A DNA stretch of 64,000 nt from Lineus longissimus. Taxonomy: Eukaryota > Nemertea > Pilidiophora > Heteronemertea > Lineidae. The DNA lies in the NCBI RefSeq assembly GCF_910592395.1, contig NC_088313.1:1986501-2050500 (forward strand). The letters run 5' to 3'. This document shows positions 7,912 through 16,900 of the stretch, one piece after another. The first letter of the stretch is position 1. Every line of letters begins with the position of its first letter. The notes beneath the pieces are model-generated. The model worked only from the letters and a program-made list of their open reading frames with translations, did no database searches and was not told where the DNA came from. The position numbers were made by a program, and so were the translations under genes.

Positions 7912-10900
7912 ATGGCTTCCAAAACTTGGATCGAGCAGTTAAAGTCTGCTCAAAAAACTGCTCTTGTGCAAGATGGTGAGGCAAATTGCCGCTTCTAAAC
8001 TCCTTTCTTATTTAACCTTGGTATATATAGATTAATCCTGTCAATTTTATTGTTCACTAATGTGCTGATGTGCACTCGTGCAGCTTTAAATGCGAGGGTC
8101 TCAAAATCACAGCACACGTCACAAAATCGAAAAAGTGGCCAGCCCACAGTGAGTGAGTTGATATCTAGGCCTATGACGTCTCGGAGAATGGTAAAAAAGT
8201 GTTGAGACTTGGTCGGCTTGACTCTGGAATGGTGAAATTTGAGCGATTTCAACAGGCAGACAGTGCATGCAAAAATTCCAAAAACTATTCTATACCGAGC
8301 TACTTACTCTCAAGTTACTCATAACATGCCTCATGTATCGTATGTAGCCATTGTACTCCAAATCAGGGAACGAGTTTACAATCCCCGATCACACCCCAAA
8401 AAAAGGTCATCGGTTGACTAACCAAACACCACTGTTCAATGGATTTATAGTTGAATGCGATCAAACTACGTCATTTCCGATCGGGGATTCTAAAGTTTAG
8501 CCCAAATCAGATCAGAAATAGTCATTAAAGGTCAAATGCTGAGCTATTTAACCTGTATTTGTGGTGAATTTTCATAATATGCTATCTTAAAAAACATAAT
8601 AAACCGGAAGGAATTCAAAAAATAGTGATTTTTTTGTGAAATAAGTGCTATTTGTTCAGTCCTCTGCGAGCTCGTTTTTGAAAAGACCGCCAGATGTGTA
8701 GTTACGCTATTCGCCGCTAGGTTCACATTGGTGACGTCACTAGTGCTGTCAAATCCACGATCATTGACCACTTCGCAAGTAAAAATGGCGGCTGCAAGCA
8801 TGGCGAGCGAAGATTGTGCGGGAGATTTGTTTGATGACGATTTGGTTGTTGATGAAGGCAATGGTGTGATTCAACCCTACATGTACGAGCCAGTAGTGGA
8901 GAGTGCGAGAGACGATTCAGATTCTTGTTCTGAATCGGGAGAAGGTGATGATGGGGAGATGGAGGATGAGCGACTTGATCGCATAGGAAATATCAATTGG
9001 TGAGTTCCAAGTGCAGTGGCAGTGCACTGTGCATGCCATGTGTATAGGCGCGGCATCAGCTGGACATTATAGGGGGCCTATGCTGATATGAGCCATGTCA
9101 TCATGTGCATGTATTCATGTACATCTCCACATAGGGCTCCATCGTTCACGGATCGAGTGTTGTCAGTAAACAATTGGCGTTTTTCACCTCGAATATGTCG
9201 AAACCACAACGTATCTTGAGTTGAGTGAGTTCATTCCACATGGTTATTTTATAGTAAGTAGGATCTCGGATCGGAATACTAAGCCTCAGGGTTTGGTAGT
9301 ACTAGGCCTACTCAAATGGAGTGAACTCTAGGCCTAATAATTTGGATTATTACTGTACTGAGACTCTTCCATTGCGGAGCATTACCACACCAAATTGTGA
9401 AATACTACACCCGCGCAAAGACAACATTTTATTCTCACCGTAACAACTTAAGGCGAAAGCCTTCGACAATACTACATTAAAATTGATTGATTGAAACAAT
9501 GCTAAATCTTACTGAGCTGAGCTCCAGGGGCCTGCCTCTCACTCAAATTTGGCCTACCCTTGGCCTAGGCCCTGATTCATTGATGGTAACGGCTATCGAA
9601 ATATCATCACTGCTGTATAACAATAACATTTATATTATACTTGTATTTGTAGGTGTCATTGTGGTGTCTGCACTCCACAAGAGAAGGGGAGGGAATCCTT
9701 GTGCTGCTCAGACTATTCACCAGTCCAGGCCAAGAAAGATGAGCTGAAAGTAGAGTGCATCACGCAACACCCAGGTTTTTCCAGCACCTGTCTTGATAGA
9801 TGGGTGCTGGAAATGTCGATGTATCACTACATCGAAGAGCAGGGACAAATAGGCGATGACCAGCCCATTCACAAGTAAGTAATGATGACCACCTCCATCG
9901 CTGTATAATTGAAGACAAGAAAAGGCAATATCAATTCAGAAATGAGATTTTTTTCTCCCTTTGAAGACTAGAAATATAGAAAATAGATATAATAAAATGT
10001 ATCTACATGTATTTAGTAATAATATTACAAGTTTTCAATAAATTTAAAAAAAACTGTCAATTAAATGTACAAACATTGTTTTCTTCCCAACAATTTCAGG
10101 TTATATCGATACGTGGCCTATAGGAACCTTGTCCGTTGGGTTTGGAAGAGGTTGGGGAGAAGGAACCGTTTGCCGCTCCCTGTTTGTGCTCGGGACAAGA
10201 TACGTGCTGCTTGGCCTGCTCCGGACAATGACGGGTACACAGGATTCAAGTATCCTACGTTCAATTGATTTGGTGTGACCGTTCAATTGATCTGTGATAG
10301 TGAACTCTGATGGTGCTATGAATGAACTCTACAGTTTGTTAAACCTCGTTTTTGTTTCTTCTACAACTTTCATCTTGTCCTGCTTGTCGTACTTTGAGCA
10401 CACTGGACCTGGAATAGGATGAGTCACTTGGTACTTGTCCTTTGCATCTCTTGCCAATTTGTAAGATGGCAGGTCATCTCTCCGCTTCAGCAGGTCCTCC
10501 AGAATTAGCTGTACATAGTCTGAAAACATAAAGGGAAGTATTAATACAAGTAATCTTGTTTCTTCTTGTTTCTTGCAGTGCTAGCACTAAAGTAACGATG
10601 CTGGCCGTTATACCTACCATATGTTGATTCAATTTTGACCTCTTTTGCTACTGCAGCTCCTCCTCTCCCCTTGGGGTATGAAATCGACCACTGCGGCTGT
10701 TCATCTTGTCCCATACGCTGTTTCCGATTTGAATTTTCATTAAAGTGGAGTGTGGCGAGCAGTAACCTGTAAAGAGAATTTGTAATATTGGCATGACTGG
10801 TCAATGCTTTCAATCAATGTTTTACTCGCCTCACGCCTTATAGTCCAAGTAGAGTGCAAGAACAAAGTTCAGTTGCATCACGAATAAGGAAAAGTGGGCT

Positions 10901-13900: not shown

Positions 13901-16900
13901 GTTTACATTAACTTTCACTACATTATTAATGCAGCTAATTTTTATTACAAGATTGTGGGATTAATCCATCCTCTGATTTATTAGTCTACACTGTTCGGGA
14001 CATTTATCTATGTAAATATGATCACCCAATATAACCAGTTTTTGTAGAGCCACACCCTGAAGTCAGTTAATAGTAAGCTTATGACACATGGGGCTGGGTT
14101 ATGATTGAACATACTTGTGGCAAAACCTCCAACTCGTCTAAACTCTGTGGCAGTACTGCATCCTCTATCAGGTGATTGCCAACCTCCTCAAATCGGCCTT
14201 CATCAGCCATCACAAAACCATCATCCTGCTCAGCTGCCTCATCCGCCTCCTCTCCATACAACACGTTGTATCCCGCTACCGCCTCTGCTACAGCCTACGA
14301 AATGAGAAACAAATATTTTAAATAGAAGGCCTATCATAATTGACTAATAGGAGTAGGACTTTTGTATTTGACTTGCTCCTACAGCTGAAGGTAGCCTAGT
14401 AGGTGCAGTCGTGCAGTATCAATTATGAAAATTATCAAGTTGTAGTCTTAAAAGGTCCTCAGGCCCCAGCAACACCACATCCTACACTTCACCATGCCTA
14501 CCCCATGGTCATGCACTCGAGATGGAGGTATTCCTAGCCTAGGCCTATGGCCACGGGGTATAATTTCATACCTACTATACTGATTTCATAATAAATAATA
14601 ATCACCTGCTGATGTGCCCTCTTCTGCACAGCTGACCGCGGCGCACTGGTCGTAGGCGTACCATCCATGGCATCGCCTTCACCATGACTGAAGAGTGTAG
14701 GGAAGGCACCTGGCTTCAACAGGCGTTTTTTAGGGTCAAATCCTATCGCACGGCATATGGCTGGGTCCAGCAGGTAATCTCCGGCAACGAAGTGCTTCGA
14801 ACATACCCTCGCACCGAGAGACGGGACCCAAGAAGACGGACGATGCATGCGTCTTACCCATACTTTTCGGGCCTTCTTGTCGCGAGGAAAATTGTAATAA
14901 CCGACCCCATCTACTTTCAACACCTTCGTTGAATCACTGCTGCAGTTTGGTGCGACGCAGTAAACCATTTTTGCTTTAGAACATGTAAAATAATTGGTTT
15001 TACATGGTAGGAACGGCGTGAACGCAACCAGAAAGTAGAATCAGCTGTCAGATGAATGAAAACAAAACTGGTCTCCTGTCTTGCGCAGGCATCTACAGCA
15101 TGGCGTTTGTGTATGCAGGCAGTGGGATCAGTCTAACAATGACAGCACTAGTGACGTCACTCCTCATTTGGAATTCCCCAAAACCGCGAGAGTTTCCGAA
15201 CGAAATACGAACTTTGCCGAAGCAAATTCACGCTGAGACAGGGCGGTTTATTTGAATTTCTTTATTCCATGCGATATTTATGCAAATAAATTTACTACAT
15301 TTGACATCTAAAGGTAACAAAAGGTTATCCTGATGTACTTTGATTAAGATTAGGCCTAACTTTGGCATTTAACCTTTAAAAGCACACAAAAAACCCAACC
15401 ACCCAACGATCATCATTGATGTGACAAAATGGCAAAAAGCTATATCATCCTGTATTAAACCAAGTATGAATCCAATCTATACTTATCACTTGGTTAAACG
15501 TATCATCATATTTTAGGAAGAAAAAAAGTGCATTACACTTTCCCTGATGGAACGGAGATGGCTGAGGAGTATGACATCAGTTCACAAGATTTAGTCGGTA
15601 CGTTTATAGAGGTTGACATTATGGTTGTACATGTAGATTGGTGAGAAAAAACATAATCTCTTTTAAGGGGGGAGGGAAGAAACCATTCACATGTAGTTGA
15701 GACTTGGAGCATCTCCGTGTGCTGGGAAAAATTGTGTCGGAATGATTGGTGAACTCATCTGACTTTTGCGTTATATTATTGACCTGCTGGAAAATCCAAG
15801 GAGCAGCCTGTCACTATCAGTGGTTTCTGTCCTTGAGGAAATTGCAACCTGGTAAATTTTCTAAACTCTGGCTTTTGCAATGCAGTAATCTACATTCGTA
15901 CAAGAAGAGTTCTTTTTCATAAGACACAATTGCTTTTGCAGTGCGTAAATGGAAGAAAAAGACCACACTGGGTGGTGGTGGCGCATGGACATTTGAAGTT
16001 GGCGAGTCTGTGGGTCCTAAGAATCTTGATGCCGAGGGACTCGTGGAAAGCTCTACCAATGTAAGCTGAACATGCTATTTAGGTTTCCTGCCCTAAATAC
16101 CAGAAGTTTAGGACAGACAGATTGGAAAGGTTGACGCAGAGTATTTTTTAATGAGATAGTCGACTAGCTCAATGACTTCCACAGTTGCCAACCAAAGAAT
16201 TTGGCTTTTTCAGTTACGTAGTTTATGACTACGGAAATTTGTGAAATAATCTCTTAAGATATTTTGATAGTCTTTCCAATTTTTAGCCCATATTTGTGAG
16301 GAAAGACACCCGCAAAGCTTACCAGTGGAGAATCAGAAATATTCCATACCCTTTAGAAACCTATGATGTCAAAGTGAACCCTGAAGATAGGTGCATCGTA
16401 GTCAGGACAAGTAATAAAAAGTAAGTCCTTGTGAAATTTGTGAAGGATAGTTCAAACTCTCTTGACTATAACTATTAATACGCTAGGAGTGTGCATTCTC
16501 AATTCCTACTGTGACAGTAGTGCAGAGTGTTCAAATTTTCATCTCAAATCTGTGTTAAAGTTAAAAAGAATATGTTTTTAATGACTGTACAAAAATGAGT
16601 TATCGTCGGTCTGATTTTCTGCTTTGGATATTCAGTTTTCTGTTGACTTTTCAAAGTAATATGCACAGTTTTCACAAGAGAAACACAGGCAATCAAGGAT
16701 AGTTTTGTTATAATCTGTTTACTTTCCAGGTATTATAAGAAGTTTGATATCCCCGATATGGATCGTATGAAATTAGCCCTTGAGCAACAAAACCTGAAGA
16801 TCGCACATGCTAATAATACTTTAATCATAACAGTAAGTATAGTTTCTATGGGTAAATGTCTTTGATGATCAGGTTACTAGTTTGGAGTTGAATAAGAGTA

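What the first reader, a model, noticed from the sequence alone, without database searches (positions are those of the whole stretch)
8731..15160. P2X7 ballast-domain gene paired with a THAP/Kolobok-like transposase in one intron
Seen: two intact spliced genes, a free-standing P2X7-type Cys-rich domain (201 aa) and a THAP/DDE protein (805 aa), face each other inside DPCD intron 1, with a 21-bp inverted repeat upstream of both. Known: vertebrate P2X7 is a P2X channel fused to this domain, and free-standing copies are common in invertebrates. Inference: the domain may be passenger cargo of a THAP-type DNA transposon, which could explain both its spread and its capture by P2X7.
Basis: partly seen in the sequence, partly recalled or inferred. 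Interest (0 to 1): 0.88.

Follow-up and report, generated by a model that had tools for sequence, protein, structure and literature searches.

The report
Jumping gene carrying P2X7-tail domain
Inside an intron of a bootlace-worm gene sits a multi-copy jumping gene of the known Kolobok kind, and one of its two proteins is the cysteine-rich domain that vertebrates likely recruited as the tail of the P2X7 immune receptor, a link already in print since 2022.

Summary
The two facing spliced genes in DPCD intron 1 are the two genes of one DNA transposon, 8529-15375 (6,847 bp), with TTAA at 8525-8528 and 15376-15379 and short AGGTYAAATGC ends. In the same genome (Lineus longissimus by exact protein match) the element recurs: 65 DNA matches, 5 of them full length, and TTAA flanks 38 of 40 ends examined. 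A clam shows the same pair under consecutive gene numbers. So the domain is a recurrent part of a transposon lineage. This is already published: Kojima & Bao 2022 name the protein KolX, assign it to the Kol0 lineage of Kolobok, and derive P2X7 from a P2X4-like gene fused to KolX. Added here: a family in a nemertean (whether a repeat library already lists it was not checked), its exact ends, a P-element-like subterminal repeat and a genome-wide linkage count. What KolX does is untested.

The parts
8529..15375 (.). Complete Kolobok-type DNA transposon (6,847 bp)
   Evidence: 24 matches start at base 1 and 23 end at base 6847 of the query (counted by hand); TTAA flanks 19 of 20 left and 19 of 20 right ends fetched
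8525..8528 (.). TTAA target site duplication, left
15376..15379 (.). TTAA target site duplication, right
8529..8539 (+). Left terminal inverted repeat AGGTCAAATGC
   Evidence: Best of 48 TTAA pairs, 10/12 match; reached in 0.35% of 2,000 simulated flanks
15365..15375 (-). Right terminal inverted repeat (AGGTTAAATGC on the - strand)
8731..8751 (+). Left arm of 21-bp subterminal inverted repeat (contains the palindrome TGACGTCA)
15140..15160 (-). Right arm of 21-bp subterminal inverted repeat
8785..10268 (+). KolX (P2X7-type ballast domain) gene, 3 exons 8785-8999, 9653-9874, 10100-10268, 201 aa
10329..14968 (-). THAP-DDE transposase gene, 11 exons, 805 aa; D458, D526, E669, D547xxH550, H607/H612/C622/H624
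7912..7975 (+). DPCD exon 1 (host gene), upstream of the insertion
15517..15597 (+). DPCD exon 2 (host gene), downstream of the insertion (3' end approximate)

Best explanation
The two genes are the two coding genes of one 6,847-bp multi-copy DNA transposon of the Kolobok kind in DPCD intron 1, which likely moves by cut-and-paste: its THAP-DDE transposase is predicted to bind the ends, and the ballast-domain protein (KolX) is predicted to be an accessory factor of that reaction. Shown: exact ends, TTAA flanks, both genes, catalytic and zinc-type residues present, near-identical copies, and convergent pairing of the same two genes at other loci. Inferred: that the THAP domain docks on the terminal and/or 21-bp subterminal repeats, that excision and TTAA integration follow, and that KolX assists rather than rides along. 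Taken from the literature: that vertebrate P2X7 gained its tail from such a KolX gene.
For: Ends and TTAA. Copies: 65 DNA matches, 5 spanning 1-6847 at 98-100%, the window's included. Transposase residues: D458, D526 and E669 are invariant columns of a 37-sequence alignment; THAP C4/C9/C56/H59 and an H2CH set present. KolX shares 7 Cys with rat P2X7, kept in nearly every relative that reaches those columns, and the model of its close copy P0001 matches only P2X7 chains (14 of 14 at E<=0.001). Linkage: 25 of 55 transposase loci outside the window's family, 25 of 25 convergent, random mean 0.55 and maximum 4 in 2,000. With 1.5 kb on each side, 6 of the 8 best KolX loci hold a transposase piece (three of them only at E about 1e-4) and 5 of the 6 transposase loci L079-L084 hold KolX.
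Against: 30 of the 55 transposase loci show no KolX match within 10 kb, and 70 of 95 KolX loci no listed transposase (both lists are capped and exon-wise, and the KolX list misses the window's own family). The N/S test on copies gave no clear purifying selection for KolX (shared variants 9N:6S, p=0.12; private 42N:16S, p=0.28) and little for the transposase (shared 16N:7S, p=0.33; private 117N:54S, p=0.02). KolX survives in copies no more often than the equally end-near part of the transposase (15 vs 11 of 23, p=0.37). The 21-bp repeat is not more conserved than its neighbours among copies (p=0.26 and 0.59).
Confidence: 0.93

Rival explanations
1. KolX is not needed for movement itself but is a regulator or host-facing factor of the element, for example a repressor, a nuclear-import or anti-silencing protein, kept because it helps the element persist.
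For: Kolobok lineages without KolX exist and some carry other accessory proteins (PMC9587614), so the core reaction does not need it in every lineage. KolX is uninterrupted (insertions ignored) in 7 of 13 copies whose transposase is incomplete.
Against: That retention is matched by end-near transposase exons, so it may be mere position; nothing in the calls points to a regulatory role.
Confidence: 0.3
2. KolX is a dispensable passenger picked up once by this element.
For: N/S counts among copies do not show clear constraint.
Against: The same pair in the same convergent layout recurs at 25 of 55 other transposase loci of this genome and in a clam; the seven cysteines are kept in nearly every relative that reaches those columns.
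Confidence: 0.03
3. Two ancient host genes that happen to share an intron, with a chance or promoter-related 21-bp repeat.
For: Both genes are spliced and uninterrupted.
Against: Exact ends, TTAA on both sides, near-identical copies on many contigs with different flanks.
Confidence: 0.01

Closest known systems
Kolobok superfamily, Kol0 lineage with KolX (Kolobok-1_XT; as described in Kojima & Bao 2022, PMC9587614, sections and passages read)
   Same: DDE transposase plus KolX with ballast fold; TTAA duplication; 5'-RR..YY-3' ends; C/DxxH motif; zinc finger between the second D and E
   Different: This family is in a nemertean and has 3 + 11 exons; its 21-bp subterminal inverted repeat is not reported for Kolobok in any held paper under that phrase (0 papers)
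Xenopus Kolobok (XKol) and T2-MITE elements (PMC6004289, passages)
   Same: THAP + DDE + H2CH transposase, TTAA, AG termini
   Different: The passages seen do not mention a second protein
P elements / zebrafish THAP9 element (PMC7776569, passages)
   Same: THAP transposase; terminal plus subterminal inverted repeats
   Different: 8-bp target duplications; P element transposase has a GTP-binding insertion; no second protein of the KolX kind is mentioned in the passages
Vertebrate P2X7 receptor ballast domain; free-standing ZCD/nanor proteins (PMC7016195, passages)
   Same: Same cysteine pattern and predicted fold
   Different: There it is fused to an ion channel or a lone gene; here it is a transposon gene

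Membership tests
Kolobok superfamily | TTAA target site duplication | tested here: met
   Both sides in the window; 19 of 20 left and 19 of 20 right ends of copies
Kolobok superfamily | Termini 5'-RR and YY-3' | tested here: met
   AG...CT in the window and in all 40 ends printed
Kolobok superfamily | DDE triad with C/DxxH between second D and E | tested here: met
   D458, D526, D547xxH550, E669
Kolobok superfamily | THAP domain and H2CH finger in the transposase (described as usual, PMC6004289) | tested here: met
   Pfam THAP 2e-14; H607, H612, C622, H624
Kol0 lineage | Second gene encodes KolX with the ballast fold and 7 Cys | tested here: met
Kol0 lineage | Transposase groups with Kol0 references in a tree | not tested
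KolobokP/E/D/H lineages | Nuclease or helicase accessory gene; second CCHC finger after the first D (P, E, D) | tested here: not met
   The three further ORFs of 100 aa or more in the element have no Pfam match, and neither protein matches a nuclease or helicase model other than the transposase ones; by eye no CCHC set between D458 and D526
P element superfamily | 8-bp target site duplication | tested here: not met
   TTAA instead

The most novel reading that the evidence does not exclude
KolX is the missing guanine-nucleotide part of the Kolobok machine: where the THAP transposase of P elements carries its own GTP-binding insertion, Kol0 elements would supply that function in trans through KolX, and P2X7 would have inherited its GDP/GTP-binding tail from a transposition cofactor. 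The 21-bp subterminal repeat, lying just upstream of both genes and at nearly equal distance from both ends, would be the docking site and also the shared, self-regulating promoter element.
Probability: 0.1. Interest if true: 0.85.

Novelty: new member of a known kind. Interest (0 to 1): 0.42.

Why it matters
It gives a well-bounded, multi-copy family in which the coding exons of both genes are uninterrupted in 4 of 23 copies examined (splice sites not checked), so the function of KolX, and with it the likely ancestral job of the P2X7 tail, can be tested directly. It also shows that genes annotated 'P2X purinoceptor 7-like' in this worm (for example P0001) can be transposon genes, which matters for anyone counting purinergic receptors.

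Tried and rejected
Rejected: the 21-bp repeat as the element's ends (no TTAA beside it; copies run about 200 bp further). Rejected: KolX kept preferentially in deleted copies (15 vs 11 of 23 for end-near transposase exons, p=0.37). Inconclusive: selection from N/S counts and conservation of the 21-bp repeat above its neighbours. The guanine-nucleotide idea is weakened: of the rat contact residues named in PMC7016195 (passages), the R578 position is R in 16 of 16 KolX rows and R546 in 15 of 16, but R574 only in the 3 Lineus rows, H547 in 2 of 16 and K583 in none. Led nowhere: scans of viral contigs with KolX and transposase alignments (no relative); Pfam on five other long ORFs of the window (none). 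The transposase model matches ISCth4 best, which adds only that it is a DDE fold. Not done: orthologous DPCD intron in a relative, other individuals, a rooted KolX/P2X7 tree, a search for miniature copies (the pattern search of the ends did not complete), a check against Repbase.
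Full report
WHAT IS THERE. Between exon 1 (7912-7975) and exon 2 (from 15517) of a DPCD gene (Pfam DPCD 7e-27 for a piece joined from the first three exons) lie two spliced genes facing each other. On the + strand, exons 8785-8999, 9653-9874 and 10100-10268 give a 201-aa protein with the P2X7 intracellular domain (P2RX7_C, E=1.3e-15). On the - strand, eleven exons from 14968 to 10329 give an 805-aa protein with an N-terminal THAP domain (E=2e-14). All inner junctions are GT/AG.

TRUE ENDS. Kolobok transposons duplicate TTAA and begin 5'-RR (PMC9587614, Background section read). 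Of the 48 pairs of TTAA sites in the two searched stretches (7801-8731 and 15161-16100), one stands out: TTAA at 8525-8528 followed by AGGTCAAATGC and, on the other strand, TTAA at 15376-15379 followed by AGGTTAAATGC (10 of 12 bases). First-order simulated flanks reach that in 0.35% of 2,000 trials, 0.2% with the RR rule. The element is therefore 8529-15375, 6,847 bp, and the 21-bp repeat is subterminal.

SPECIES AND COPIES. The transposase is identical over all 723 residues to a Lineus longissimus isoform (P0004, which skips one exon) whose longest contig has 21,663,950 bases, the length of contig C6 on which the window lies. When the own genome became searchable, the element as DNA query gave 65 matches, 5 of them full length (the window's own included) at 98-100% identity, with 24 matches starting at base 1 and 23 ending at base 6847 by my count. 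I fetched 20 of the 24 left and 20 of the 23 right ends. 19 of 20 and 19 of 20 are flanked by TTAA, with different outer flanks as printed; the 21-bp repeat is perfect in 17 of 20 and 18 of 20, with one mismatch in the others. It starts at base 214-216 from the left end in 15 of 20 copies and leaves 215 bases to the right end in 18 of 20; the window's left arm is 12 bases shorter than that. Over the whole genome the 21-mer occurs 50 times with up to one mismatch and its reversed control 0 times. In 23 copies examined (24 fetched sequences, two pieces of one copy merged) the coding exons of both genes are free of stops and indels in 4; ignoring insertions, KolX is uninterrupted in 15 and the transposase in 5. 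Splice sites were not checked. This is a multi-copy transposon that was likely active recently.

P2RX7_C matches the genome 96 times (150 of 187 candidates scored). For transposases I used a sea-urchin query (P0046: 69 matches, 57 of 953 candidates scored). None of the 69 and none of the 96 overlaps the window's family, so the count is independent of it; it also shows that the KolX list is incomplete, since split exons are missed. Merged to 55 transposase loci and 95 KolX loci, 25 of 55 have a KolX match within 10 kb, and all 25 are convergent, as in the window. Random positions on the same contigs (lengths taken as the largest hit coordinate) give a mean of 0.55 and a maximum of 4 in 2,000 trials. 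The 55 are loci, not independent families, and the null ignores regional clustering of transposons; neither would make every pair convergent. 25 of 95 KolX loci have a listed transposase. Of the eight best KolX loci, held with only 1.5 kb on each side, six contain a transposase piece by HMM (three only at E about 1e-4); five are purely convergent and one is mixed. Of the transposase loci L079-L084 five of six contain KolX, including one that the Pfam search had missed. Of 13 named non-vertebrate KolX hits, 2 share a contig length with a listed transposase; the transposase list stopped at 100, so misses there mean little.

PROTEINS. The transposase has D458, D526 and E669, invariant columns in a 37-sequence alignment, D547xxH550, and H607/H612/C622/H624 matching the H2CH finger; the model of its close copy P0003 resembles DDE transposases (ISCth4). 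KolX shares seven cysteines with rat P2X7; among 17 aligned sequences every row that reaches these columns keeps them but one, at one column. It aligns to P2X7 structures by sequence (E=3e-8), and the model of its close copy P0001 (mean pLDDT 66.7, core better) matches only P2X7 chains among 14 hits at E<=0.001.

WHAT IS KNOWN. Kojima & Bao 2022 (PMC9587614; outline, Background, the lineage section and passages read) report that KolX of the Kol0 Kolobok lineage has the ballast fold, that free-standing ballast proteins had not been recognised as transposon parts, and that P2X7 arose by fusion of a P2X4-like gene with KolX. The earlier paper on P2X7's tail (PMC7016195, passages) has no word beginning 'transpos'. 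A full-text search for KolX finds only the 2022 paper, and P2X7 with Kolobok only that and one review seen as a listing.

HOW IT LIKELY WORKS. By the families' known behaviour the transposase should bind near both ends through its THAP domain, cut the element out and insert it at TTAA (inferred). P elements and the zebrafish THAP9 element have a similar layout of terminal plus subterminal inverted repeats (PMC7776569, passages). The 21-bp repeat here, 33 bp upstream of the KolX start and 171 bp upstream of the transposase start, contains TGACGTCA (recalled as a CRE promoter site), so it could serve as docking site, as promoter element, or both (inferred; one search gives no support from conservation). 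No held paper joins Kolobok with the phrase 'subterminal inverted repeat'. KolX as an accessory factor is inferred from its recurrence; its biochemical job is unknown. The bolder nucleotide idea rests on the GTP need of P element transposase and the GTP/GDP site of the P2X7 ballast domain (PMC9859053, passages), and the contact residues are only partly kept.

VERDICT. A real, well-bounded family of a known transposon kind. The general claim is known; the additions are the family, its ends, the subterminal repeat and a genome-wide linkage count.

Noticed in passing
window 10163-10198 and 11237-11272: A 36-bp stretch of the last KolX exon is repeated at 97% identity in the same orientation inside a transposase intron, as if copied there during repair.
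   Followed up: no
window 8375-8390 / 8479-8494: A 16-bp inverted repeat (94%) frames about 120 bp just outside the left end of the element, perhaps a small older insertion.
   Followed up: no
window 2450-2830, 3431-3757, 4264-4611: ORFs in these stretches share a repeated peptide (EPPLADTSLLRT-like, in more than one frame and on both strands), pointing to a dispersed repeat near the DPCD gene.
   Followed up: no
window 11339-11584: The database isoform P0004, identical to this locus otherwise, lacks this exon, so the transposase transcript may be alternatively spliced.
   Followed up: partly
G000 C17:1641385-1642710: A transposase 38-57% identical to the two queries P0004 and P0013, close to the window's family, with no listed KolX match within 10 kb.
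   Followed up: no
P0001, P0103, P0104, P0106, P0111, P0112: Public annotation names these KolX-type proteins of a nemertean and bivalves 'P2X purinoceptor 7-like'.
   Followed up: partly
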